Positions 36,940 through 49,933 of a stretch of 64,000 nucleotides of DNA are shown here, one piece after another (positions within the stretch are counted from its first letter, which is position 1; each line of letters begins with the position of its first letter). Under the pieces are notes generated by a model, which saw only the letters and a list, made by a program, of their open reading frames with translations, did no database searches and was not told the origin of the DNA. Source of the stretch: Ilumatobacter fluminis (GTDB lineage: Bacteria; Actinomycetota; Acidimicrobiia; Acidimicrobiales; Ilumatobacteraceae). The stretch lies in the NCBI RefSeq assembly GCF_004364865.1, contig NZ_SOAU01000001.1, positions 4,248,001-4,312,000 of the forward strand, written 5' to 3'. A program made the translations under genes and the position numbers.

Positions 36940-37846
36940 AGCGGGCGGCGAGGAGGGCGGCTCGGGTGGCGGCGTGTTCGTCGGGGTTGCCGCCCATCAC
37001 GACGGCGGTGAAGTCGGTGGCGCCGGCAGCGCGGATCTTCTCGATACCGTCGACGACCTCCTCGTGGCTACCGATCAGCGACAGTTCGGCCAGTCCGTGC
37101 ACGCCCTCGATGTCGAGCATCGCCCGGTACGACGGCAGCTCGGCGTAGATCGACAGGATCTGGCCGACAAAGTCGCGCGCCGACTGCGGGTCGTCGGTGA
37201 CCCAGACCGGCAGGCTGCACACGATGCTGGGCGTCGGCCGGCCGGCCTCGTCGGCGGCGGCGTCGATCGCCGGCTTGATCTGCTGCTCGATCGTCTTCGG
37301 GCCGACGCACCACAGGATCGTGCCGTCGGTGCGCTTGCCCGCGACCCGCAGCATCTGGTCGCCGAGCGCGGCGAGCATCACCTTCGGCGGGGTCGTGGTC
37401 GGGCGGGTGCCCTCGCCCACGAAGCTGAAGAACTCGCCCTCGTGGTTCGACGAACCCGTCTCGAGCAGCGGGAGCAGGATGTCGAGGTAGTCGAGCATGT
37501 GGCGGACCGGCTTGCGCCACTCCATCTTGTAGTAGTTCTCGACGACGGGTCGATGCGACAGACCGATGCCGAGCACGAACCGGCCGTCGGACGCCGCCTG
37601 CGCCGTGAGCGCCGACGCCGCCATGGCGTGCGGGTGTCGCGGCCACGTCGGCACCACCGCGGTGCCGAGCGTCAGCGACTCGGTCTTCGTGCCGACCAGC
37701 CCGAGCGTGGCCTGGGCGTCGACCAGCGCCGTCTGGGCGAGCCAGTAGCTGTCGAAGCCGGCCGCTTCGGCGTCGACCGCTGCCGCGGTGATCGTGCCGA
37801 GGTCGGGTTGGGCGAGTTGGTCGGAGCCGTTGATGCCGATCTTCAC
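36938..37846 (-). CDS. LLM class flavin/F420-dependent oxidoreductase
   Basis: 302 residues. KIGINGSDQLAQPDLGTI, GFDSYWLAQT, LTLGTAVVPTWPRHP and FVLGIGLSHRPVVENYYKM are features of the F420-dependent luciferase-like group. GTG 37846 starts the first beta-strand (VKIGING); GTG 37855 three codons earlier is the alternative. Single gene, outside the operator-controlled regulon (I see no copy of the palindrome upstream), divergent from the phosphodiesterase gene. Confidence 0.86.
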   Translation of the reverse strand: MKIGINGSDQLAQPDLGTITAAAVDAEAAGFDSYWLAQTALVDAQATLGLVGTKTESLTLGTAVVPTWPRHPHAMAASALTAQAASDGRFVLGIGLSHRPVVENYYKMEWRKPVRHMLDYLDILLPLLETGSSNHEGEFFSFVGEGTRPTTTPPKVMLAALGDQMLRVAGKRTDGTILWCVGPKTIEQQIKPAIDAAADEAGRPTPSIVCSLPVWVTDDPQSARDFVGQILSIYAELPSYRAMLDIEGVHGLAELSLIGSHEEVVDGIEKIRAAGATDFTAVVMGGNPDEHAATRAALLAAR

Positions 37847-37900
37847 GCTCGTCACCGTACGTGTTGCGACCGGCCGCGGAAGGATCGCGAGAATGGGGTC

Positions 37901-38401
37901 GTGCCGAGACTGTTCGTGGCCGCCTTCCCGACGCCCGAGATCGCCGACGTGCTGGCGACGATCCCGGTCGACGACTCGTCGGGCGTTCGGATGGTGCCGC
38001 CCGAGAACTGGCACGTGACACTGCGCTTCCTCGGCGACGCCGACACGGCCACCGTGATCGAGCGACTTCGGGCCACGGCCACGCCGTTCGCCGAGGCCGA
38101 GATGGGGCCGCATCTCGAGCACCTCGGGCCACGGCAGGTCGTCGCACCCGTGGCCGGCGTCGACCACCTCGCTGCGTCGGTCACGCGCGCCACGGCCGAC
38201 CTCGGCGATCCGCCTCGTCACTCGTTCCGAGGGCACCTCACCGTCGCCCGCCTCCGCCGGGGTGCGACGTCTCGGCTGCCGGGCGAGCCGGTCGGCGGGC
38301 GCTTTCCCGTCGACGAGATCGTGCTCGTCGAGAGCACGCTGTCGGACACCGGTTCGCGCTACGAGGCGGTCGCGAGGTTCTCGACCGTTCGGGCCGTCTG
38401 A
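37901..38401 (+). CDS. thpR: RNA 2',3'-cyclic phosphodiesterase (2H family)
   Basis: 166 residues. Both catalytic H-x-T motifs are present: HVTLRFLG (His38, Thr40) and HLTVARL in the C-terminal half. The start PRLFVAAFP and the end LVESTLSDTGSRYEAVARF match ThpR/LigT, which opens 2',3'-cyclic phosphates on RNA ends and was first described as a tRNA ligase. GTG 37901 gives the normal N-terminus. Its 3' end overlaps the convergent FtsK-like gene by 43 bases. Confidence 0.9.
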   Translation: MPRLFVAAFPTPEIADVLATIPVDDSSGVRMVPPENWHVTLRFLGDADTATVIERLRATATPFAEAEMGPHLEHLGPRQVVAPVAGVDHLAASVTRATADLGDPPRHSFRGHLTVARLRRGATSRLPGEPVGGRFPVDEIVLVESTLSDTGSRYEAVARFSTVRAV

Positions 38402-41400
38402 TCGGCGAACGCATCGACCACCTGGACCGTCGTCGGGAGGCGGTCGACGAGGAGCACCCCACGGCCGGGCACGAGTCGCAGACCGGGCCGGAGGCGAAGC
38501 TTCGTGCCGGTGAGTTGGAGGAAGTCGGTCGGGTCGTCGGGCTGCAGCACGAGCATCCGGCGCGCCCGCCGAAGTTCGTTGACGGCGCTGCTCGTCGTGT
38601 AGCCCGACATCGACCGGGTGTCCATCGTCGCGACGACGCGCACGGCATCGTGTTCGAGCAGCCGCGCCCAGATCGGCTCGAGCACCGGGTCGTCGAACGC
38701 GTCGAGATCGTCGACGAACAGCACGACCCGGTCGTCGGGGAGCAACCCCACGAGACGGTTGGCGACGCGGTCGAGCAGTTCGGCGACAGCCGGCGCACGA
38801 CCGAATCGGCTCCGACTCGGCGGCAACCCCCGATCGGCCAGTGGGCTCGATGCCGGCCCGACGACGTAGCACTCGCCGGCGGCGATCGCGTCGAACGCCG
38901 CCGCCAGCGCCGTCGACCGCCCCGACCGGCCCGGTCCGACGATCACGGCGTGCGACCACTCGATGTCGATCCCGACCCGCCGGCCAGTGACGTCGGCGAC
39001 GGCGAACCCCGGTCCGGACGCGCGCTCGGGCAACGGCTCGCTTCGCAACCGCTCGGTGCCGGCGTCCGTCCGGTCCGCGGCGAGGAGCCCGATGGCAGCA
39101 GCCTGGCCGCGAGCCGTCGGGTCGTCTCCTTCGACCGCGACCTGCACGGTGACACCGTCGAGCAACCCTCGGCCGGCATTGTCGGCGATGCCGGCAGCAC
39201 GGTCGGCCGGCACGCCGAGGTCGGCGTACGACTGCGGGTCTGCGTGGTGCAGCACGAGCCTCGCTCCGATCGCGGACTGGAGTCGCGTCGGGATCGCCGC
39301 CCGCCGGTCGGCCGTGACGACGACGTGCATGCCGACCTGTCGCCCGTCGACGACGATGCGCTGCACCAGGTCGGACCAACCGTCCCCGCCCGATCCCGCC
39401 GCGAGCGGGTCGAGCAGGACGTCTGCCAGCGCGCCGAACCCGTCGATCAGCACGACGATGCGTTCGAGCCGTTCGCCCCCGGCCCGATGGTGTGCCGTCA
39501 GGTGCTCGGCCCCGGACGCTGCCAGGATCGAGCGTCGTCGGTGGAGTTCCTCGTCGAGCACCATCAGCTGTCGGGTCACCGCTTCGAGGTCGTCACCGGT
39601 CGCGACCCCGATCACCGACGGCAGCGCGCGCAGCGAGACCAGCCCGCGCGACGCGAAGTCGAGCACCATCGTCCGTGCACCGGCACGCTCGGCGTCGGCG
39701 GCGATGGTGCGCAGCGCCGTCGTCTTGCCGGCGCCGCCCGATCCGTACACCGTGAGTCCGCCGGTGCGTTCGAGGTCGACGATCGCCACGCCCTGCTCCT
39801 GGCGTTCCGGCGCGTCGAACAGGCCGATCGCGATCCGCCGACCCGGCTCGTCGTGCCGGTCGTGCTCGAGGTCGCCGGCGTCGACAGCAGCGGGCAGGTT
39901 CTCGCGCCACGGTCGCCGAGGCGGCTCGAGACCGAGTCGCGTGTTCGCCTCGGCGATCGCGTCGAGCACGACCTCGAGTTGGGTGCGCCCGTCGCCCGCC
40001 GATGCCGTCGCGATGGCAGCGGTCGCATCCGGACGGTCGAACGGGGCGACGGCGACCGGTGGTCGTTCGACGGCGCCGATCGACGGCGCCCCGGCGAAGG
40101 CACTCTGGAACTCGACGAGGGTGCGCGGGCCACGCCGAACGAGCCCTCGCCCGCGCAGCGGTGCCGGGATGTCGGCGGCGTCCGGGCTGTCGAGGATCGC
40201 CGACGACTCGGATCGATCGAGCATGCGGAGCGAGATGCGCAAGTTCGTGTTCGCGAGGATGTTCTCGTCGACCGCTCCGGTCGGCCGTTGTGTGGCGAGC
40301 ACCAGGTGGATGCCGAGGCTGCGGCCGCGCTGGGCGATGTCGACGATGCCGGCGACGAAGTCGGGCACCTCCTTGACGAGGGTGGCGAACTCGTCGACGA
40401 CGATGACGAGCGACGGGGGCGTCAGCGCCGGATCGCGTTCGAGCAGCTCGGCGAGATCCTTCGCTCGCCCTTCGAGCAGCGCCATGCGTCGTTCGAGTTC
40501 GGCGCGCAACGACACGAGCGCCCGCAGCGCAAGGCCGGCCGACAGGTTCGTGACGTAGCCGACCGTGTGCGGCAACCGCTCGAACACCTGTGACGACGCC
40601 CCGCCCTTGTAGTCGACGAACAAGAAGTTGAGCCGCTCCGGTGAGTGCCGCGCCGCGAGGGCGGCGACCATCGACTGGAGCAGCTCGCTCTTGCCGGATC
40701 CCGACGTGCCGCCGATCAGGGTGTGGGGGCCGTCGGCGACCAGGTCGAGTTCGACCGGGCCGTCCGCACCGACGCCGATCGAGAACGGCAGGGCAGGGGT
40801 CGTTGCCGACACCGACCACGCCGTGGCGACCGAGTCGGGCGTCGGCGCTCCGATCACGTCGAACAGCGGCACGGTGCGCGGGATCGCCGTGGCGAGCGAC
40901 GCCGTCGACGCGTCGCGCACGGGTGCCAGCGCACGTGCTGCCCGTTCGGCGACGACCGGACGGACGTGGTCGAGTTCGAGATCGCGATCGGCGACGTCGG
41001 GGTCGGTCGACCAGAGGCGGCCGACGAGACGCGCCCCGTCGGCCTGCGACACGGCGAGAATGCCGCCCGCCTGTCGCGGCACGTCGGCGGCACGGTCGGC
41101 CAACCACACGATGCTGATCCCGACGTCGAGCGCCTGGTCGAGCAGACGGGCGACCGCCGTCGGGTCGGGTCGCAGCGTCGCGTCGAGCACGACGACCATT
41201 CGAGGCCGGGTGGTCATGGTGCCGTGTATCGGGTGGTCGAGCCGTTGCTCGACCACGTCGATGAGGCGGGCGACGAGGTCGTCGGCACCGTCGGTGTCGT
41301 CGGCCAGATGCGGGCCCGCCAGGGGCGACGTCACGGCGCGCAGATGTGGGAGCCACTTCGTCCACCCGAGGTTGCGCACCGGAGAGGCAGCGAGTGCGAT

Positions 41401-42678
41401 GGCGACGTCGTCGGGGCTGTGGAGGGCGGCCGTGTGCAGGACGACCGACGACGCCGCTCCGTCGACGAGGACCGGATCGCCGTGCACCGCCAGATGCCGT
41501 TCGGTGAGCGGGTGACAGACCGGCACCGCCGACAATCGTTCGGCGCCTCGGACGGCATGCTCGGCCTCGACCCGCAGGTCGGCGTCGCCGCCGGACTCGA
41601 GCGCCACCTCGAACGCGGCTCGGTCGTCGCCGAGGCCGAGCCGCACGTGCAGGACGTCGGGCGCGTCGCGTCCTCGTTCCCACAGGTCGACCGTGCGGAG
41701 AGCGGCGCGACGGGCGAGATCGGCGACGTCGGGCGAGGCCACGTGACGTCGCCGGGCTTCGTCGGCGGCGAGTTCGTCGAGTTGTCGGCGACGCTCGCTC
41801 AGCATCGACCGGAACGTCGCCAGGTCGTCGACGACGTTGCGGCGACCCGATCGTCGGTCGTCGATCGCCGTCCCGATCATCACGACCGGCGAGATGAGGG
41901 TGAACAGGAGGAAGGTCGCCTGTCCGGTGATCAGGTACATGGCGACACCGGCGACGAGCGGTGCCAGCACGGCGATGAACTGGAGGCGGCGAGGTTCGGG
42001 GCGCGTTGGGATCGGACCGATCGGGTCGACGGCGACGGGCCGGACGGTCGGTGGTCGGTAGGGCGTGCGGTGGAAGGCGAGTTGCCCGAGACGGTCGCGC
42101 CCATCACACGGCTGCCGCTCGAACCGTCGGACGACGGCTCGGGTTCCTCCCAAGACGACCGTCTGGCCGACACAGAGCCGGCGGCTGTCACCCGGGGCGA
42201 CCGGATCGCCGTCGACCGCTGCGCCGTTCGATGCGTCGGGGGCGACGGCCAGTTCGATCGAACCGGTCCGATCGACCGACAGGGTCGCATGCACGCGCGA
42301 CACGGTGGGATCACCGATCGTGCAGTCGGCGGCCGAACTCCGACCGATCGTGTTGGCCCCGGTCCGCAGGACGAACGACTCGCCCGACGCCGGTCCCGCC
42401 ACAACATCGAGTGCGAGCGCCCGTCGCGGGGTCGAATCGGGTGCAGCGGTGCCTCCGACGACGAGTTCGTCGCCGGTCAGCAGGTCGAGTTCGCCGACCG
42501 GGCGGTCGAGATCGATCGACCGGCCGGTACGCCGGATCGTGAACCGGGTGGCCGGACCGAGCCCGGTGGACGCGGCGATCGCCAGGCTGAGGTCGGCGCC
42601 GACGTGATCGTCGTCGACCGCGGCGACCACGTCGCGGGTCTCGTCACCGAGGCGGAGGCGGAGGGCGATCTCGTGCAC
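38359..42678 (-). CDS. EssC/EccC-like T7SS ATPase: ubiquitin-like, FHA, membrane, three FtsK domains
   Basis: 1439 residues. Order: a beta-grasp YukD-like region (about 1-78, ending LLTGDELVVGG); an FHA domain (about 95-180, GANTIGRSSAADCTIG and SRVHATL); two membrane segments (about 230-275); then three FtsK/SpoIIIE-type domains with Walker A GGTSGSGKSE (near 657), GSGGAGKTT (near 981) and GPGRSGRST (near 1250). The last has Arg for the invariant Lys, so it is probably non-hydrolytic, as the third domain often is in EssC. Walker B VIVVDEFA belongs to domain 1. Role: motor of a type VII-like secretion system. GTG 42678 is the only plausible start; it lacks a strong ribosome site. Confidence 0.87.
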   Translation of the reverse strand: MHEIALRLRLGDETRDVVAAVDDDHVGADLSLAIAASTGLGPATRFTIRRTGRSIDLDRPVGELDLLTGDELVVGGTAAPDSTPRRALALDVVAGPASGESFVLRTGANTIGRSSAADCTIGDPTVSRVHATLSVDRTGSIELAVAPDASNGAAVDGDPVAPGDSRRLCVGQTVVLGGTRAVVRRFERQPCDGRDRLGQLAFHRTPYRPPTVRPVAVDPIGPIPTRPEPRRLQFIAVLAPLVAGVAMYLITGQATFLLFTLISPVVMIGTAIDDRRSGRRNVVDDLATFRSMLSERRRQLDELAADEARRRHVASPDVADLARRAALRTVDLWERGRDAPDVLHVRLGLGDDRAAFEVALESGGDADLRVEAEHAVRGAERLSAVPVCHPLTERHLAVHGDPVLVDGAASSVVLHTAALHSPDDVAIALAASPVRNLGWTKWLPHLRAVTSPLAGPHLADDTDGADDLVARLIDVVEQRLDHPIHGTMTTRPRMVVVLDATLRPDPTAVARLLDQALDVGISIVWLADRAADVPRQAGGILAVSQADGARLVGRLWSTDPDVADRDLELDHVRPVVAERAARALAPVRDASTASLATAIPRTVPLFDVIGAPTPDSVATAWSVSATTPALPFSIGVGADGPVELDLVADGPHTLIGGTSGSGKSELLQSMVAALAARHSPERLNFLFVDYKGGASSQVFERLPHTVGYVTNLSAGLALRALVSLRAELERRMALLEGRAKDLAELLERDPALTPPSLVIVVDEFATLVKEVPDFVAGIVDIAQRGRSLGIHLVLATQRPTGAVDENILANTNLRISLRMLDRSESSAILDSPDAADIPAPLRGRGLVRRGPRTLVEFQSAFAGAPSIGAVERPPVAVAPFDRPDATAAIATASAGDGRTQLEVVLDAIAEANTRLGLEPPRRPWRENLPAAVDAGDLEHDRHDEPGRRIAIGLFDAPERQEQGVAIVDLERTGGLTVYGSGGAGKTTALRTIAADAERAGARTMVLDFASRGLVSLRALPSVIGVATGDDLEAVTRQLMVLDEELHRRRSILAASGAEHLTAHHRAGGERLERIVVLIDGFGALADVLLDPLAAGSGGDGWSDLVQRIVVDGRQVGMHVVVTADRRAAIPTRLQSAIGARLVLHHADPQSYADLGVPADRAAGIADNAGRGLLDGVTVQVAVEGDDPTARGQAAAIGLLAADRTDAGTERLRSEPLPERASGPGFAVADVTGRRVGIDIEWSHAVIVGPGRSGRSTALAAAFDAIAAGECYVVGPASSPLADRGLPPSRSRFGRAPAVAELLDRVANRLVGLLPDDRVVLFVDDLDAFDDPVLEPIWARLLEHDAVRVVATMDTRSMSGYTTSSAVNELRRARRMLVLQPDDPTDFLQLTGTKLRLRPGLRLVPGRGVLLVDRLPTTVQVVDAFADQTARTVENLATAS

Positions 42679-42730
42679 GTGATCGACCGTACGGACGTCG
42701 GGTCGCCGTGGACATGGGGACGACTCCCCG

Positions 42731-43396
42731 TCACCCGACCGCTGCCAGGTGTCGGCGTCGGGCGCGCCCGTCGACCCACGTGTACGAGACGACGCCGTCG
42801 GGCCGGTGGACGCGAACGAGTCGGCGCAGGCCGTCCCGGTCGATCTCGTAGCGGTAGGTGACGGTCTGGCCCCGGTCGGTCGCTGCCTGCGCGATCGAGC
42901 CGTCGGCCCAGTCGAGGTGGAGCCGGTGGCCCCCGTCGTCGATCGAGATCGCCCGGCCCGCGGCATCTCGCCGCAGCCGGATCGAGGCGGCACTCGACGT
43001 CCAGGCGGTGAGCCGCCCGAGTTCGTCGAACCGGGCCGTCGCCGCGCCGTGGGCGGCGTCGAGACCGAGGTGCCAGGTCCGGTCGTCGACGGTGAGGGTG
43101 TGGAGCGGTCCGGCGGTGCACAGCCAGCCGGTCGAGGTGGGCACGAACCGCAGGGTTCGGGCGTCGGCGAACTCGAGCACGATGTGACCGTCGACCGGAA
43201 CGAGCGCCAGGTCGATGAGGGTTCGGAAGCCGCTCCCGAACACTCCGGCCGTCGTGAAGTCGGGTCGGTGGCGGCGGGCCAACGACGGGCGGCCGGGTGG
43301 GAGGTCGTGCTCGACCGGTGCCGCGTGGGACGGGACGGCACCGGTCGGCACGCCGGCTCGCACGTCGGACCGACGGGTTGGGTCATCGGTGGACAT
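42731..43396 (-). CDS. Miniature RHS protein (DUF6531-like cap plus YD repeats)
   Basis: 221 residues. PTGAVPSHAAPVEHDLPPGR, then a LARRHRPDF segment and GVFGSGFRTLIDLAL, follows the pattern of the N-terminal cap of actinobacterial RHS polymorphic toxins. FDELGRLTAW, YRYEIDRDGLRRLVRV and HRPDGVVSYTW are degenerate YD repeats. RHS proteins are normally 1000-3000 residues and end in a toxin; here the frame stops after a few repeats (VDGRARRRHLAAVG). No signal peptide. It lies 13 bases after the WXG gene and 52 before the ATPase gene. It may be a secreted partner or the remnant of a toxin. Confidence 0.72.
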   Translation of the reverse strand: MSTDDPTRRSDVRAGVPTGAVPSHAAPVEHDLPPGRPSLARRHRPDFTTAGVFGSGFRTLIDLALVPVDGHIVLEFADARTLRFVPTSTGWLCTAGPLHTLTVDDRTWHLGLDAAHGAATARFDELGRLTAWTSSAASIRLRRDAAGRAISIDDGGHRLHLDWADGSIAQAATDRGQTVTYRYEIDRDGLRRLVRVHRPDGVVSYTWVDGRARRRHLAAVG

Positions 43397-43409
43397 GCGG
43401 CGGGCCGGA

Positions 43410-43994
43410 TCAGACGTCGGCGAGGACGGCGCTGTCGATCTGGTTGCGGATGAAGGTGGTCAGCTGGGTGCGTGCCTCGTCACAGGTCGACGACGCGCTG
43501 CCGGTCAGGGCCTGCACGGCGCCGACGGCGTTCTGCTTCGCGTTGCCTTCCCAGTCGGTGCGCTGGAGGGCTGCGAGGTTGCGCTGCATCGACTCGCGGA
43601 TCGAGGCGAAGTGTGCGTCGACGACGGGCATGAGCGCCTCGAGGGCGGCGGTATCGACGTCGACGTAGTCGACGACTGCGGGGGCCGGAGCGCTGATCGC
43701 CTTGTCGGCGAGCGTGATGTCGATCGGTGCGCCGCCGAGGCTGGCGGCGATGTTCGACGTCGAGACGCGGACGGCGTCGGCCATCGCTCCCATGCTGCGG
43801 TGCAGCGCCCGGCCGAACTCCTCGGCGAGCCGGCCGCACTCGGTCTTGAACTGGACGGCGTTCGGGCCGAAGTAGTGGACCGAGACGACGTCGTCGGCGA
43901 GCCGGCCGAGCTCGGCGGTGATGGCGTCGAACTCACCTTGGGCGGCGGCTCCGTAGCTGCGGACGCTTGCGGGATTGACTCGGATGAGGGTCAT
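43410..43994 (-). CDS. WXG100-like T7SS substrate or partner
   Basis: 194 residues, almost entirely helical and without a signal peptide. The WXG motif is Trp-Glu-Gly at about residue 148 in LQRTDWEGNAKQNAV, between two helices as in WXG100 proteins, but the protein is twice the standard length of about 100. The first half (NPASVRSYGAAAQGEFDAI, FGPNAVQFKTECGRLAEEF) looks like a second helical hairpin. AAGGAG precedes ATG 43994. Association with the FtsK-type ATPase gene supports export through a type VII-like machine. There is no C-terminal YxxxD/E signal that I can point to with confidence. Confidence 0.78.
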   Translation of the reverse strand: MTLIRVNPASVRSYGAAAQGEFDAITAELGRLADDVVSVHYFGPNAVQFKTECGRLAEEFGRALHRSMGAMADAVRVSTSNIAASLGGAPIDITLADKAISAPAPAVVDYVDVDTAALEALMPVVDAHFASIRESMQRNLAALQRTDWEGNAKQNAVGAVQALTGSASSTCDEARTQLTTFIRNQIDSAVLADV

Positions 43995-44107
43995 TGGGGT
44001 GCTCCTTCTCTGCGGCCCCGCTCGTCGGAAGCCGGTCGTGCTTGACACGAGCGACGGTACGGATCGTCGCCGTTGCACGGAATGGGGAGGAGTCCCCCGC
44101 CGGGCCG

Positions 44108-44395
44108 TCAGGGGGCGTCGGCGAGCACGAGCTCGCGCTTGGGGGAGGCCCCGTCGGAGGTTCCTTCGACGAGCACGCCCGGCACTCCGCGGTCGCGGAC
44201 TTCTTGCACCGTGATCCAGCCGCGTGATCGCCGAGCGACGATGTCCTCGGCGATCGCCGTCACCAACGAGGTCACCTGCGAGGTCCGTCCCGTGCCGAGG
44301 CCGACACTCTCGGAGAAGACGATCGACTCGTTCACGACGGCACCGACGTCGTCGTGCGTGCGGACCGGGAGATGCGATGACCTCACGTGGCCCAC
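44108..44395 (-). CDS. Small hypothetical protein upstream of the WXG gene
   Basis: 95 residues from GTG 44395 (GTG 44386 is an alternative). I do not recognise the family. The third codon positions are almost all G or C, as in neighbouring genes, so it is probably coding. A central helix SLVTAIAEDIVARRSRGW is followed by ITVQEVRDRGVPGVLVEG. It precedes the WXG gene in the same orientation (113-base gap), so it may belong to the secretion locus. Confidence 0.5.
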   Translation of the reverse strand: MGHVRSSHLPVRTHDDVGAVVNESIVFSESVGLGTGRTSQVTSLVTAIAEDIVARRSRGWITVQEVRDRGVPGVLVEGTSDGASPKRELVLADAP

Positions 44396-44499
44396 CCCGA
44401 TCGGGTCGGTGCCGCGGTGTGTCGGGCGTGCGTTGTCACTGGCGGGTTCCTCACGATGTGCTCGACTCCTTCGTCGAGCCCCAGTGAGCCACCGGAACT

Positions 44500-44527
44500 C
44501 CTTGATCCGGTCGACCCCGGATCAAGG
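44500..44527 (-). terminator. Terminator hairpin of the DUF7064-type gene
   Basis: Perfect 11-bp arms (44500-44510 and 44517-44527) with a 6-base loop, just past the minus-strand stop at 44538. An outer pairing (44483-44490 with 44526-44533) is an alternative fold. Confidence 0.65.
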
Positions 44528-44537
44528 CTCACTCAAG

Positions 44538-45584
44538 TCAGGTGTCCTCGCGTGGGACGTCGGGGCCGACCGGTCGGCCGTCGACGACCTGGTCGAGGTA
44601 CTCCGACATGCCGACGCCGGTCAGGTCTCCGCACTGGTATCGGGTCATCGCCTCGGTGATGCGCGTCGTCATGAACTCGCCATCGGGGTTCGCCCGCCGG
44701 TTGCGCAACGGGATGAGCGAGATGACCTCACCGGTGACCTCGTACGTCTCCCCGTCCTCGGTCACGGCGCGGCAGCGCATGGCGGTCTGGTTGCCGTGCT
44801 CGTCGAAGTCGCTGTCGATGTCGACCTCGGTGAGCTTGCGGTAGCGGCCGCCGCTGTAGACCATGCCGCCCTGACGGGGCGGACGGTCGGGGCCGCCGTC
44901 GATGACCGACAGCATCATCGCCAGGTCGGGGCCGAGCATGATCGGCAGCCAGCGGTACCACGAGATCGCCTGCCAGTAGCGAGGGCCCCATGACTTGTCA
45001 CGCAACCCGTAGCCGTCGATGGTGACGGCCTCGTCGCCGACGACGATCGTGCCGGTCACGGTCGTGTGCTGCTCGTAGTGGGCCTTGGCAAAGCTCTTCT
45101 CGGGGTCGGTCTCGAGTTCGGTCCCGTCGTCGTACTGCGGCTTGCCGCCGTACATGGGCGACATGCCGCGAACGGTCAGATCGACGGTGCAGGGCACGTG
45201 CGGGTTGTCACGGAACGCCTGGCGCGGGTCGGCCATCTGGAGCGGGTCGTCGAGCACGCACAGGTTGCCGTCGTAGGTGATGCGCAGCTCCTCGAACGGG
45301 GTGACGACCTCGATACGGAGACCGCCGGCGTCCATGGCGTCGTTCGTGTCGATCGTGGGTCGCTGGTACATGAACCCGACACGTCCACCGGGCAGATAGA
45401 CGCACACCGTCATCTCGGCGTAGCCCTCGTTGACCCGGTTGCCGAGTCGGAACCATCCGCCCACCTCGCGCTCGAGATCGAACGCGTTGAGGTACATCGA
45501 CTCGTTGTAGTTCTCGGCCGCGTCGGGTTCGTGCGGGTACTCGTCGTGCGGTTCGAGGACCGTGATGACCGTGCGCTCCGTCAT
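44538..45584 (-). CDS. DUF7064/DUF7065-type (AttH/CrtC-like) protein
   Basis: 348 residues, no signal peptide. The sequence NESMYLNAFDLEREVGGWFRLGNRVNEGYAEM, GRVGFMYQRP, YEQHTTVTGTI, DGYGLRDKSWGPRYWQAISWYRW fits the two-beta-barrel lipocalin-like family around CrtC/AttH, here the actinobacterial DUF7064 group (family naming from memory). These proteins occur near steroid or fatty-acid catabolic genes but their reaction is not established. ATG 45584 is chosen; a GTG six codons upstream is possible. Single gene with its own terminator. Confidence 0.7.
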   Translation of the reverse strand: MTERTVITVLEPHDEYPHEPDAAENYNESMYLNAFDLEREVGGWFRLGNRVNEGYAEMTVCVYLPGGRVGFMYQRPTIDTNDAMDAGGLRIEVVTPFEELRITYDGNLCVLDDPLQMADPRQAFRDNPHVPCTVDLTVRGMSPMYGGKPQYDDGTELETDPEKSFAKAHYEQHTTVTGTIVVGDEAVTIDGYGLRDKSWGPRYWQAISWYRWLPIMLGPDLAMMLSVIDGGPDRPPRQGGMVYSGGRYRKLTEVDIDSDFDEHGNQTAMRCRAVTEDGETYEVTGEVISLIPLRNRRANPDGEFMTTRITEAMTRYQCGDLTGVGMSEYLDQVVDGRPVGPDVPREDT

Positions 45585-45644
45585 GGGCCGAGTCTGTTGC
45601 ACATGCCGGAGGCCCGACGAGCCGGACGACGTGGAGGGCCGTGC

Positions 45645-46040
45645 TCAGCGGCGTCGGCGACGGATCCGGATCGGGCCCTTGGCAGTCGACGGGTCGACGA
45701 CCTGCGACCGTTGCACGATCTCGACGGAACCGCCGACGACCAGACGGCGGGCGGCGGCACGGGCAGGTTCCATCAGGTCACGCCACTCCTCGCCGATCGC
45801 CCCGTTGCGGCCGGCGACGAGGCGGGCTGCCTCGGACGGACAGATGGTGGCCGTCCGCGCCCGCTCCTCGAGGAGCTCGAGGATCGCCACCTCCAGTGCC
45901 TCGTCGTCGGGTCGCCGGCCGCGACGACGGCACATCGACGAGCAGTACTTCACCGCGTCCCAGTCGCGCTCCCACTTCTTCCGCCACGTGATCGTGCGAC
46001 CGCACACGACGCACGACTTGGCGGCGGGAGCGGCAGGCAT
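45645..46040 (-). CDS. DUF2256-DUF3253 fusion protein
   Basis: 131 residues. The N-terminus has a four-cysteine knuckle (Cys10, Cys13, then the KYCSSMC pair) with the KWERDWDAVKYC block of DUF2256; the rest (AILELLEERARTATICPSEAARLV, WRDLMEPARAAARRLV) is DUF3253. The pair is also found as separate genes elsewhere. A nucleic-acid-binding role is suggested by zinc-knuckle plus helical, basic tail (RIRRRRR), but no function is known. ATG 46040 gives the compact form. Confidence 0.78.
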   Translation of the reverse strand: MPAAPAAKSCVVCGRTITWRKKWERDWDAVKYCSSMCRRRGRRPDDEALEVAILELLEERARTATICPSEAARLVAGRNGAIGEEWRDLMEPARAAARRLVVGGSVEIVQRSQVVDPSTAKGPIRIRRRRR

Positions 46041-46044
46041 GACG

Positions 46045-46094
46045 CCAGTGTTCCCGGTCGGGCACTGGTCGAACCCGGCCGGATCGAACCGGGT
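46045..46094 (-). terminator. Weak hairpins downstream of the IPT/TIG gene
   Basis: Two short stems on the minus strand: 46073-46078 with 46089-46094 and 46045-46050 with 46063-46068, each 6 bp, directly after the stop at 46094-46096. Confidence 0.4.
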
Positions 46095-49000
46095 CAGATC
46101 GTCGTGCGACGTCGGGTCCACACGGTCAGCGTCAGGCCGAGACCGACCAGGAGACCACCGGCGAGCAGCGCGCTCGTCGTTCCCGATCCGGTGGCCGGGA
46201 GTTCCACGTCGGGCGCGGGCTCCGGGATCGTCGTCGTCGTCGTCGTGGTCGTCTCGGGCGCAGGGTCGACGTACAGATACGTCGCGGCCAGCGGCTCGCC
46301 GGAGCAGACCGCCGAGCCGATGACGACGACGTCGACGGAAGCGGCCGCGTGGGCAGGGGTGACCGCGGTGATCGTCGTGTCGTCGACGACGGTGAAGCTC
46401 GTCGCGGACACACCGTCGAAGGTCACGTCGATCGCTCCGGTGAAACAGACGCCGGTGATCGTCACGGTCGTGCCGCCCGACGTCGGGCCCTGCGGCGGAT
46501 CGATCGTCGCGACTCGCGTGGCGCCGATGTAGGTGAAGGCGAGCGGGCCACCGTCGCCGTACGGCGAGACGACGATCACGTCGACCGGGCCGCGGGTGCC
46601 GGCCGGGGTGACGACCCGGACGGTCGTGTCGTCGACCACGGTGAACGACGTCCCGGCCGTTCCGTCGAAGGTGACGCCGGTCGCATGGGTGAGATTCGTC
46701 CCGGTGATGGTCACGGTGGTCCCGCCGGTGTCGGGGCCGCTGGCCGGAGTGAGCGAGGCCGCGCTCGCGGCGACGGAGGTGTAGGTGAACGTCAGCGGCG
46801 CTGCGTCGCCGAACGCCGACCGCACGACGACGTCGACGGGGCCGGGCGCGTGGGGCGGGGAGACGACCGTGATCTCGTCGTCGCTCACGACCGTGAACGA
46901 CGTGCCGGGCATCCCGTCGAAGGTGGCGGCGGTCGCATCCGTGAAGTTGTCGCCGCTGATCGTCACCGCGGTACCTCCGACCTCGGGCCCGGTGGCGGGG
47001 TCGATCGACGTCGCGTCGGCGGGGCCGGGGACGTAGGTGAAGGTGAGCGGCGCCGAGTCGCCGTACGGCGAGGTCACCACGACGTCGACCGGACCGGGGG
47101 CATGGGGAGGGGTCGCGACGCTGATCGTCGTGTCGTCGACCACCGTGAACGCCGTGCCGGCGACGCCGTCGAACGTGGCCGACGTGGCGTCGTCGAAGCC
47201 GGAGCCCGTGATCGTGACGGTGGTGCCGCCGTCTTCCGGACCGCTGGTCGGGGTGAGCGACGTGGCGGAGGCCGGGTCGGGCAGGTAGTCGAAGGCGAGC
47301 GCGTTCGAGTCGCCGCCCGACTGCTGCACGATCACCGCGACCGAACCGGGTGCGTGCGGCGGGGTCGAGGCCGTGATGGTCGAGTCGTCGACGACGGCGA
47401 ACGAGGTACCGGCGATGCCGTCGAACGTGACGCCGGTCGCCCCGGTGAAGTTGGAGCCGGTGATCGTGACGGCCGTACCGCCGCTCTCGGGCCCGGAGCC
47501 GGGCGTGATCGAGACGGCGTCGGCAGCGTCGTCGAGGTACGTGAAGGTGAGGGGATCGGCGTCACCGAGCGGTGACTGCACGACGACGTCGACGGCACCC
47601 GGCGCATGCGCCGGAGACACGACCGTGATCTCGTCGTCGTCCACCACCGTGAACGACGTGCCCGGGATGCCGTCGAACGTCACACCCGTCGCGTTCACGA
47701 ACCCGGTCCCGGAGATCGTCACGGTCGTCCCACCGTCGTCGGGCCCGGAGTTCGGGTCGAGCGACAGCGCGACCGGCGACTCCAGGTACGTGAAGGTGAG
47801 GGGATCGGCGTCACCGAGCGGTGACTGCACGACGACGTCGACGGCACCCGGCGCATGCGCCGGCGACACGACCGTGATCTCGTCGTCGTCCACCACCGTG
47901 AACGACGTGCCCGGGATGCCGTCGAACGTCACACCCGTCGCGTTCACGAACCCGGATCCGGAGATCGTCACGGTCGTGCCTCCGGTGTCGGGACCCTCGG
48001 TCGGGTCGAGCGACGTGGCGACCGGCGTCTCGAGGTAGGTGAACGTCAGCGGGTCGGCGTCGCCGAGCGGGGATTCGACGACGACGTCGACGGCACCCGG
48101 GGTGTGGGGCGGGGAGACGACGGTGATCGTCGAGTCATCGACGATCGTGAACGAGGTGCCCGGGGTGCCGTCGAACGTCGCCGCGGTCGCGGGCGTGAAG
48201 TTCGAGCCCGTGATCGTCACGGTCGTGCCTCCGGTGTCGGGACCCTCGGTCGGGTCGAGCGACACGGCGATCGCGTCGTCGGGGACGTAGGTGAACGTCA
48301 GGGGTGCGCTGTCTCCTCGGGGCGACTCGACGACGACGTCGACGGCGCCGGGGGCATGCGCCGGGGTCACGGTCGTGATCGTCGAGTCGTCCACGATCGT
48401 GAACGAGGTGCCGGGCGTCCCGTCGAAGGTGGCGGCCGTGGCGTTCGTGAAGCCGGACCCGGTGATCGTGACGGCGGTGCCGCCCGAGTCGGGACCGGTG
48501 TCGGGGGTGATCGTCGACGCCGACGCTGCGGGGGCCAGCGAGTTCGGGCCGACGGTTGCGTTGCCGATGTCGAGGGTGAGCGCACCGGTACCGGGGAGGA
48601 GGGTGACGCGGAGGGCGGTCTCGGTGAAGGCCCCCGCCGTCGTCGACTGGCTGTTGACGGTGAGCGCCAGGGCTGCGGACAGGACCGGGTCGAGTGCGGG
48701 TCCCAGGTCGGAGGCGATCGTGGTCGCGAGCCCGCCACCCAGGCCCGACAAGGCGCCGACGACGCCGGTCACGTCGGCCAGCAGTCCCGAGAGGATGGCC
48801 AGTTCGAACGGCAGCGCTGCCCCGACCACGCTGATGCCGGTGGTCGTCCCGTCGGCCAGGTCGCCGAGCGTGGTGTCGATGGTGACGATGTCGAGGCCCA
48901 GCAGCTGGACGCCGCCGGTCACGGTGATGGCGTCGAGCGCACCTTCGATCGCTGTGTCGAGATCGGCGAGGACGCTGGACGTCAGACCGGTGATGTTGGC

Positions 49001-49933
49001 GACGATCGTGGCGATCTGTGCCGAGGTCAGCACATCGGTGTCGGCCGGCTGTCCTTCCAGCGCGGTGATCTCGTCGAGATCGACGGTGACCAGGCCGCTG
49101 TTCAGGTCGACGGTGACACCCGGGTAGGTCGGATCGGACGCCGGGGCGGCGAGGAACGGGGCGACCGCCGCGGTGAGCCCGCTCGCACCGACCGTGACGT
49201 CGACGTCGATCAACCCGAGCCCGCCGAGCAGGCCGCCGAGGGTCGTCTCGAGCACGCCGTCGAGACCGGCGATGCCTGTCTCGGCGGTGGCGACGGTCGT
49301 GGTCACGGTCGAGCCGACGGCGGCGACGGTGGGGCTCGTGATCTCGAGCCCGACGTCGGCGATCGCATAGTCGCCGGTCGCCGTTCCGGGTGCCGCCTGC
49401 GACGCCCTGGCGGCGACGCCGTCGACGGTGAGATCGAGTTCGGCGATCTCGGCGAGGAGCGCGGGCGACAGGCCGAGGTCGGCGACCAGGTCGCCGAGTG
49501 ACAGTCGCAGCGGCCCGGGGGCGACACCCGGCGCCGGCGTGATCCCGGTACCGATCGCTCCGTCGGACGCGACGAGACCGCTGGCGGCGACCGACGAACC
49601 GTCGGACAGGGCGCTGGCGTACTGTCCGACGACGCCCGCCTCGGTCAGTGCGAGGGGCACCTGGACACCGCCGCCGATGTCGAGCACGCGGAGTCCGAGC
49701 ACGCCGAGGTCGAGGTTGCCCGAGTTCGTCTCCGTGGCCGTGCCGTCGCTGTCGGCCTCCTCGACGCCGATCGAGGCGACCAGCGTGGCGTCGAGTCCGA
49801 GCAGGGAGCCGTCGAGGAAGACCGTGTCGGCGTGCGAGGTGTCGCCCGGCAGCGCCTGGACCGGCGGGGCGAACGCAGCGATCGCACACAGACCGACGGT
49901 GGACGCAACGGCGAGGAGTCGGCGGGTGACCAT
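46094..49933 (-). CDS. Surface protein: choice-of-anchor-G-like region, nine IPT/TIG repeats, LPATG anchor
   Basis: 1279 residues. Signal peptide (RRLLAVASTVGLCAIAAFAPPVQA) then a Leu/Gly/Ala-rich beta region to about residue 490 that resembles the choice-of-anchor G adhesive domain. Nine IPT/TIG immunoglobulin-like repeats of about 83 residues follow, each with GP-x-x-GGTxVTITG, AT-x-x-TFDG and the PVDVVV-type strand. A Thr/Pro stretch leads to LPATG, a hydrophobic helix and RRR: a sortase signal. Likely a long cell-wall stalk or adhesin. ATG 49933 is chosen because earlier in-frame codons add a non-hydrophobic lead. Confidence 0.85.
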   Translation of the reverse strand: MVTRRLLAVASTVGLCAIAAFAPPVQALPGDTSHADTVFLDGSLLGLDATLVASIGVEEADSDGTATETNSGNLDLGVLGLRVLDIGGGVQVPLALTEAGVVGQYASALSDGSSVAASGLVASDGAIGTGITPAPGVAPGPLRLSLGDLVADLGLSPALLAEIAELDLTVDGVAARASQAAPGTATGDYAIADVGLEITSPTVAAVGSTVTTTVATAETGIAGLDGVLETTLGGLLGGLGLIDVDVTVGASGLTAAVAPFLAAPASDPTYPGVTVDLNSGLVTVDLDEITALEGQPADTDVLTSAQIATIVANITGLTSSVLADLDTAIEGALDAITVTGGVQLLGLDIVTIDTTLGDLADGTTTGISVVGAALPFELAILSGLLADVTGVVGALSGLGGGLATTIASDLGPALDPVLSAALALTVNSQSTTAGAFTETALRVTLLPGTGALTLDIGNATVGPNSLAPAASASTITPDTGPDSGGTAVTITGSGFTNATAATFDGTPGTSFTIVDDSTITTVTPAHAPGAVDVVVESPRGDSAPLTFTYVPDDAIAVSLDPTEGPDTGGTTVTITGSNFTPATAATFDGTPGTSFTIVDDSTITVVSPPHTPGAVDVVVESPLGDADPLTFTYLETPVATSLDPTEGPDTGGTTVTISGSGFVNATGVTFDGIPGTSFTVVDDDEITVVSPAHAPGAVDVVVQSPLGDADPLTFTYLESPVALSLDPNSGPDDGGTTVTISGTGFVNATGVTFDGIPGTSFTVVDDDEITVVSPAHAPGAVDVVVQSPLGDADPLTFTYLDDAADAVSITPGSGPESGGTAVTITGSNFTGATGVTFDGIAGTSFAVVDDSTITASTPPHAPGSVAVIVQQSGGDSNALAFDYLPDPASATSLTPTSGPEDGGTTVTITGSGFDDATSATFDGVAGTAFTVVDDTTISVATPPHAPGPVDVVVTSPYGDSAPLTFTYVPGPADATSIDPATGPEVGGTAVTISGDNFTDATAATFDGMPGTSFTVVSDDEITVVSPPHAPGPVDVVVRSAFGDAAPLTFTYTSVAASAASLTPASGPDTGGTTVTITGTNLTHATGVTFDGTAGTSFTVVDDTTVRVVTPAGTRGPVDVIVVSPYGDGGPLAFTYIGATRVATIDPPQGPTSGGTTVTITGVCFTGAIDVTFDGVSATSFTVVDDTTITAVTPAHAAASVDVVVIGSAVCSGEPLAATYLYVDPAPETTTTTTTTIPEPAPDVELPATGSGTTSALLAGGLLVGLGLTLTVWTRRRTTI
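47535..47978 (-). repeat. Near-identical tandem DNA repeat in IPT/TIG domains 3 and 4
   Basis: 47535-47729 and 47784-47978 (offset 249 bp, 83 codons) differ at only a handful of positions over about 195 bp; the first 150 bp differ at one. Other IPT units are much more diverged. Confidence 0.8.

What the first reader, a model, noticed from the sequence alone, without database searches (positions are those of the whole stretch)
38359..44395. Minimal type VII secretion-like locus with a miniature RHS protein
Gene order is small unknown protein, WXG protein (194 residues), 221-residue RHS-cap/YD protein, then an EssC-like ATPase. EccB, EccD, EccE, mycosin and a long RHS toxin are all absent. A short YD-repeat protein coupled to a WXG protein and its motor is not a system I know, and may be a stripped-down secretion or contact-dependent device.
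Basis: partly seen in the sequence, partly recalled or inferred. Interest (0 to 1): 0.76.

Follow-up and report, generated by a model that had tools for sequence, protein, structure and literature searches.

The report
Secretion locus with truncated RHS toxin
A compact bacterial protein-export gene pair looks intact here, but the large toxin that sits beside it in related bacteria has shrunk to a small shell fragment, which two species nevertheless seem to keep as a working gene.

Summary
The gene order is real: tandem-WXG protein (194 aa), 221-aa RHS-shell protein, EssC-like ATPase, all minus strand. The "small unknown protein" is probably not a part. The 221-aa protein matches only the first part of the RHS shell. 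The locus most likely descends from a full type VII/RHS-toxin cassette by deletion. Yet it does not look like neutral decay: one sister species keeps the mini-RHS at 57% identity with the same ends, and codon models show purifying selection (omega 0.20-0.28 by likelihood, 0.47 by counting), from a single pair of sequences. The exporter is unusual: two fused WXG hairpins, and a probably ubiquitin-like plus FHA N-terminus on the ATPase. No subtype in the parts I read of PMC11217815 matches it. New variant of a known kind, moderate interest.

The parts
43410..43994 (-). tandem (double) WXG protein, 194 aa; partner or substrate of the exporter (inferred)
   Evidence: Start codon with AGAAGGAG upstream. 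Model with helices 8-37, 46-80, 115-144, 151-193, mean pLDDT 91.8. Profile meets EsxA 2vs0 at E 0.0034 over positions 1-87 and EsxB 6j19 at E 0.013 over 120-182; these are weak, and unrelated coiled-coil chains appear from E 0.016. 91% identical in the sister species, 29-67% in the other 12 relatives aligned.
42731..43396 (-). mini-RHS, 221 aa: N-terminal piece of an RHS shell (DUF6531 region plus first YD repeats), without the N-terminal region, rest of the cage and C-terminal region of the full RHS relatives
   Evidence: Pfam RHS_repeat; alignment to full RHS proteins of relatives; profile hits to N-terminal parts of solved RHS cages, e.g. 8h8a E 1.4e-23; model mean pLDDT 80.2, residues 1-24 below 50; TMq 0.64 to 8qjc and 8qjb; codon tests.
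38359..42678 (-). EssC/EccC-like ATPase, 1439 aa: probably ubiquitin-like N-terminus, FHA domain, two membrane helices (by eye), FtsK/SpoIIIE ATPase domains
   Evidence: N-terminal region; relatives
44108..44335 (-).
   Evidence: no match at E<=0.001 in the other 9 genus genomes; no room for it in the sister locus
42679..42730 (-). spacer between mini-RHS and ATPase with a small inverted repeat (by eye) and a stretch conserved in the sister species; role unknown
   Evidence: DNA alignment

Best explanation
The locus is a compact type VII-like exporter whose linked RHS toxin has been deleted down to a short shell fragment. Shown: the WXG and ATPase genes are intact and constrained; two relatives carry a small partner gene plus a full RHS protein in the same slot, and others carry RHS beside the WXG gene in other orders; here the partner gene, the RHS protein's N-terminal region, most of its cage and its C-terminus are not found; what is left is an open frame shared by two species whose codons look selected. 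Inferred: the deletion direction (full to mini); that the ATPase still exports the tandem WXG protein, which stands in for the usual EsxA/EsxB pair; that the FHA and ubiquitin-like N-terminus replace separate EsaB-type and regulatory subunits; and that the mini-RHS can no longer enclose a toxin and is kept as a non-toxic accessory, either bound to the exporter or WXG protein or interfering with RHS assembly.
For: Of 19 genomes with this WXG protein, 2 have full RHS in the same slot (L075, L076) and 7 more have RHS, or its start, beside WXG in another order or on a contig that ends there; 1 has RHS with its partner gene on another contig. Same-genus G005: WXG, a 147-aa partner gene (matches the partner of L076, E 6.8e-18), then the start of an RHS N-terminal region (profile E 9.3e-13; best of 2000 shuffles 0.023). 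On the ATPase tree the mini and bare loci are nested among RHS-bearing ones. The mini-RHS covers only the first part of the shell, and no other RHS or partner remnant beyond chance stood out at 37,001-46,500. Selection: omega WXG 0.05, ATPase 0.155, mini-RHS 0.20, 2dL 56.5 for the last; with one base frequency for all positions 0.276, 2dL 40.9; for codons 38-220 the observed 2dL (67.7 and 63.6) exceeded all 40 neutral simulations under each of two frequency models.
Against: Only two genomes have the mini-RHS (2 of 10 in the genus), so selection rests on one pair; counting methods give a higher dN/dS of about 0.47; for codons 38-220 the F3x4 estimate ran to a boundary and one null run reached 2dL 24.7, so the fits are rough; codons 1-37 alone show no significant selection (2dL 1.9). 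Synonymous divergence rises within the gene, so recombination between alleles is possible. The NGN motif seen in most of the aligned relatives is lost. The G005 evidence links two contigs by inference: its ATPase end lies on another contig, with an extra gene before the shared flanking genes, and its upstream flank differs. No expression, export or binding data. Three genus members keep WXG and ATPase with no such cargo between them, so the pair does not need the fragment.
Confidence: 0.6

Rival explanations
1. The mini-RHS is a neutral leftover: the toxin was deleted and the fragment has simply not yet been lost. High GC keeps frames open by chance.
For: Relatives have full RHS in the slot; three bare loci in the genus show that complete absence is tolerated; RHS signature residues are missing; many long antisense frames show that open frames are cheap at this GC; codons 1-37 show no significant selection.
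Against: Codon models reject neutrality. Third positions differ more than first and second: 91 of 215 against 119 of 430, p 2.5e-4. In a DNA alignment the gaps inside the frame are 6, 6 and 3 bases; one further gap of 11 bases at the 3' end can be placed after the stop codons, by eye.
Confidence: 0.22
2. A stripped-down contact-dependent device in which the mini-RHS is itself the delivered effector of the WXG/ATPase pair.
For: Same three-gene order in two species; mini-RHS frame selected.
Against: It lacks the partner gene and the N-terminal region that the full RHS relatives have and any C-terminal region beyond the early shell; 2 of 19 genomes with this WXG protein have it.
Confidence: 0.1
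3. The ATPase-WXG pair is broken or used for something other than protein export, and the whole locus is on its way out.
For: No membrane partner gene is linked among the neighbours scanned. Four genus members show no match to this WXG protein at E<=0.001 (G001, G004, G006, G009), though G004's contig ends inside the ATPase.
Against: WXG and ATPase are strongly constrained. The ATPase lies on the same fetched stretch as WXG in 17 of 19 genomes; G005 has its end on another contig and G323's contig is short. Several of these have long RHS cargo.
Confidence: 0.08

Closest known systems
T7SS loci with small partner proteins and RHS toxins (LrhA beside EssC8 in Listeria, PMC10327511; T7SSc and T7SSd examples in PMC11217815)
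   Same: EssC-type ATPase, WXG protein, small partner, long RHS protein with DUF6531 and repeats, a further small gene (immunity candidate by position): the arrangement of L075 and L076
   Different: In the window the partner, the cage body, the C-terminal region and the further small gene are not found; the WXG proteins are fused in tandem; no other type VII subunit gene is linked among the neighbours scanned
T7SSd of Actinomycetota (PMC11217815)
   Same: Actinomycetota; FHA on the ATPase; no separate ubiquitin-like gene; RHS cargo in one example
   Different: T7SSd has kinase TsdD, TsdH and TsdI; I saw none linked here. Kinase-like genes lie near some distant relatives (by eye)
RHS cage proteins (RhsP 8h8a, RhsA 7q97, Salmonella bongori Rhs core 8qjc)
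   Same: Sequence profile and predicted fold of the first part of the cage
   Different: About 200 residues against about 1000: too short for a closed cage, no C-terminal part (inference)

Membership tests
Type VII secretion (common core) | FtsK-related EssC/EccC ATPase | tested here: met
   TIGR03928 E 2.6e-150 and TIGR03924 E 1.4e-98, both below the curated cut-offs; FtsK_SpoIIIE over its Pfam cut-off
Type VII secretion (common core) | WXG100-family helical hairpin protein | tested here: met
   two predicted hairpins; weak profile matches to EsxA and EsxB; WXG100 below Pfam and NCBIfam cut-offs. Foldseek gave no match at E<=0.001, the best being Dps-type helical bundles
Type VII secretion (common core) | ATPase-dependent export of the WXG protein | not testable with these tools
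   needs a secretome
T7SSa | EccB, EccD, EccE, mycosin | tested here: inconclusive
   no match among 6 neighbouring proteins; genome-wide EccB search had no ringing control; EccD, EccE and mycosin not searched genome-wide
T7SSb | separate YukD/EsaB protein | tested here: not met
   no YukD match in the genome at E<=0.001, B. subtilis control rang
T7SSb | EssA, EssB, EsaA | not tested
   no genome-wide search; none among the 6 neighbours scanned
T7SSd | linked kinase TsdD, TsdH and Ig-like TsdI | tested here: inconclusive
   none among the 6 neighbours scanned. A TIG-domain protein lies at 46094-49933 but none was called in the sister stretch L069. No T7SSd sequence was compared
RHS polymorphic toxin | DUF6531 and a long run of RHS repeats forming a cage | tested here: not met
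   one RHS_repeat stretch over cut-off, DUF6531 below it, 221 aa; the 5 long RHS proteins or parts scanned have 10-14 stretches
RHS polymorphic toxin | variable C-terminal toxin domain with immunity gene | tested here: not met
   the frame ends within the early shell and the ATPase starts 52 bases later

The most novel reading that the evidence does not exclude
The mini-RHS is a domesticated piece of a former toxin: a shell-start fragment kept by selection as an accessory or RHS-blocking factor of a two-gene type VII exporter made of a fused WXG pair and a ubiquitin-FHA-ATPase fusion, a subtype not among those I saw described.
Probability: 0.3. Interest if true: 0.62.

Novelty: new variant of a known kind. 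Interest (0 to 1): 0.42.

Why it matters
It shows a type VII/RHS-toxin cassette in several states around a conserved WXG-ATPase pair: full, placed elsewhere in the genome, cut to a shell fragment, or missing. One can therefore ask what the exporter does without its toxin and whether toxin shells are reused. The relatives also point to a compact exporter in Ilumatobacter and its order that would suit work on the smallest working type VII machine.

Tried and rejected
Rejected: that the mini-RHS continues by frameshift into more RHS sequence. tblastn with partner and full RHS proteins of relatives gave its strong hits on the mini-RHS itself (best E 6.8e-16); the best hits elsewhere at 37,001-46,500 were E 0.025 or worse. 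Rejected as a part: the 75-aa frame. Considered: another full RHS of this type elsewhere in the genome. A search with the I. nonamiensis RHS found none, but scored only 2 of 21 first-look candidates and missed even the mini-RHS. An RHS_repeat search scored 60 of 60 candidates and rang in one gene only, 3020 aa, about G000:C1:372348-381410; it also missed the mini-RHS, so it is blind to short pieces. The mini-RHS itself as query found only itself in this genome. So a long RHS of this type elsewhere is unlikely, not excluded. A search of the genus with the G005 partner protein found only G005's own copy; partner proteins are only 37-45% alike, so a distant one could be missed. The TIG-domain neighbour was considered as a TsdI-like part and dropped because the sister stretch shows none.

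Weak or empty results: the 145-150-aa partner proteins and the RHS N-terminal region have no clear Pfam family (one of 5 partners meets WXG100_2 at E 0.044, none of 4 N-termini meets a WXG or LXG model), so 'Lap-like' and 'WXG-like' for these rest on position, size and my eye. The PDB profile search of the ATPase N-terminus listed ubiquitin-fold chains but also MamM chains, and no chain named YukD among the 49 sequences. Foldseek gave no match at E<=0.001 for the WXG model. The WXG100 search of the genome is unusable: it rang in all 14 controls at the loose threshold. IQ-TREE failed on thread count, so FastTree was used. My simple gene caller mis-framed some loci (L041, L052, L070/L082, L123, L127); for those I needed I used tblastn placements. 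In the tally I dropped G480 (WXG profile E 9e-5; no WXG by tblastn).

Papers: eight searches. 'Ilumatobacter' with 'type VII secretion' gave 0 papers and 'Acidimicrobi' with 'WXG100' 0 papers. The other six gave listings, in which I saw no title or abstract start describing this; apart from the two papers named in the report I read none of them.
Full report
What is there. The three genes are as described, on the minus strand: a 194-aa WXG protein (43410-43994), 13 bases on a 221-aa RHS-like protein (42731-43396), and 52 bases on a 1439-aa ATPase (38359-42678). Pfam finds RHS_repeat over its cut-off and DUF6531 below it in the 221-aa protein, WXG100 below cut-off in the WXG protein, and FtsK_SpoIIIE and FHA in the ATPase. 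NCBIfam puts the ATPase closest to EssC, below that model's cut-off. The 75-aa frame upstream has no match at E<=0.001 in the other 9 genomes of the genus, and the nearest relative has only 121 bases between its DUF7064 gene and WXG. I do not count it as a part.

The exporter pair. With 14 sequences the WXG protein is modelled as two helical hairpins (mean pLDDT 91.8). Its profile meets EsxA with the first half (E 0.0034) and EsxB with the second (E 0.013), weak matches with unrelated coiled coils close behind. I read it as a fused WXG pair. The first 85 residues of the ATPase look ubiquitin-like: 4 of 11 relatives meet YukD (best E 7.3e-4) while the window's own member does not, and the profile's best solved match is a redesigned ubiquitin at E 6e-6. 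An FHA domain follows. No separate YukD was found in the genome, with B. subtilis as positive control; the EccB search had no ringing control and says nothing.

Relatives. The WXG protein was found in 13 of 221 family genomes, this one included. A search of 298 genomes of the order gave 6 matches: G000 itself, four clear ones outside the family (G307, G350, G354, G323) and G480 at E 9e-5, where tblastn saw no WXG; I dropped G480. That makes 19 genomes. What lies beside WXG: two have WXG, partner gene, full RHS, small gene(s), ATPase in that order, namely Ilumatobacter nonamiensis L075 (RHS 1565 aa) and L076/G020 (1621 aa). Six have RHS next to WXG in another order or on a cut contig: RYN_267, L080/G350, Desertimonas flava L081, G307, G354 (cut) and G323 (cut, ATPase not on the contig). 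G005, same genus, has WXG, the partner gene and the start of an RHS protein at the contig end. G017 has the partner and RHS on another contig. Two have the mini-RHS (G000, G003). Three have WXG and ATPase with nothing between (G002, G008, G007). Three have other neighbours (G236, with a calpain-like protein; RYN_106; G218). G233 is cut by the contig end. The mini-RHS as query found 2 of 10 genus genomes and 3 of 61 relatives, the third being a weak RHS match.

Origin. The mini-RHS aligns with the DUF6531 region and first repeats of the full proteins, after their N-terminal region and before the long repeat run. Its profile meets the N-terminal part of solved RHS cages (8h8a E 1.4e-23, residues 172-384). 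Its model (mean pLDDT 80.2) matches the Salmonella bongori Rhs core with TMq 0.64, other top RHS hits being 0.31-0.46; the model was built with RHS relatives in its alignment, so this is not independent. No other partner or RHS piece stood out at 37,001-46,500. On the ATPase tree, RHS-bearing lineages lie outside and around the mini and bare ones, one inner node having support of only 0.54. On the WXG tree G005 is the sister of the mini pair with local support 0.97. The G005 RHS start is a relative of the other RHS N-termini: profile E 9.3e-13, best of 2000 shuffles 0.023. Its ATPase end lies on another contig beside relatives of the two genes downstream here (77.6% and 52.8% identity), with one extra gene before them, and its upstream flank lacks the DUF7064 gene. 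So same place is likely but inferred for G005. G004, the nearest ATPase on the tree, is cut inside the ATPase, so its cargo is unknown.

Decay or retention. The two mini-RHS proteins are 57-58% identical, with the same start context and nearly the same end. Codon models give omega 0.05 for WXG, 0.155 for the ATPase and 0.20 for the mini-RHS, where 2dL against omega 1 is 56.5. With one base frequency for all positions it is 0.276 and 40.9. For codons 38-220, 40 neutral simulations per frequency model reached at most 24.7 (F3x4) and 4.6 (F1x4), against 67.7 and 63.6 observed; the F3x4 estimate itself ran to a boundary. Counting methods give dN/dS of about 0.47. Third positions differ more than the others, p 2.5e-4. 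Against this: codons 1-37 are slow at all three positions and show no significant selection; synonymous divergence rises within the gene and stays high through the ATPase and ligase-like genes, which could mean allelic replacement, or only the common link between fast protein change and synonymous change. With two sequences I call retention likely, not proven.

Function. I found no other long RHS of this type in this genome, with the limits of sensitivity told under Tried and rejected, and no partner gene. WXG and ATPase are kept here and, in three genus members, without this cargo, so the pair probably has a use of its own, most simply export of the WXG protein or of unlinked substrates; G017 shows that RHS cargo can be unlinked. 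The mini-RHS lacks the N-terminal region, partner gene, closed cage and C-terminus of the full proteins, so I do not think it is a delivered toxin. An accessory or blocking role is my best guess, without direct evidence.

Known ground. From PMC11217815 I saw the abstract and section list, passages of sections 2, 5, 9, 11, 14 and 15, and sections 15 and 16 whole. It describes T7SSc-j, small partner proteins (Laps) and RHS cargo. From PMC10327511 I saw the abstract and section list and section 15, on LrhA beside EssC8. The full loci of the relatives are this known kind. The tandem WXG and ubiquitin-like ATPase N-terminus, with no other subunit seen nearby, did not match a subtype in the parts I read; the sections on T7SSc, T7SSg and T7SSh/i were not read. 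The genus name Ilumatobacter is taken from record titles of relatives; the window's own record is unnamed.

I left the odds as they were, since one change strengthens and the others weaken the case slightly.

Noticed in passing
window 46094-49933 (-): 1279-aa protein with 9 TIG stretches, a signal-like start and an LPATG-like end (by eye); none was called in the sister stretch L069.
   Followed up: partly
window 42679-42730: Spacer between mini-RHS and ATPase holds a small inverted repeat and a stretch conserved in the sister species.
   Followed up: no
window 37901 to about 43200 against L069: Synonymous divergence from the sister species is higher from within the mini-RHS through the ATPase to the 2'-5' ligase-like gene than in the WXG, DUF7064 and LLM genes around them; possible allelic replacement.
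   Followed up: partly
L069:226-4413: The sister species has a second EssC-like ATPase (29% identity) a few kb from this locus; the window's genome shows only an FtsK-like second match.
   Followed up: no
L126:3226-5934: Partner-like region fused to an RHS protein in one frame, cut by the contig end.
   Followed up: no
L072:6625-7983: Calpain-family protease-like protein near the WXG gene, a possible alternative cargo.
   Followed up: no
L123 (G307): Two WXG copies on either side of a long RHS match; possible duplication.
   Followed up: no
L055:349-9411: The window's genome has a 3020-aa RHS-repeat protein with a signal-like start (by eye), far from this locus.
   Followed up: partly
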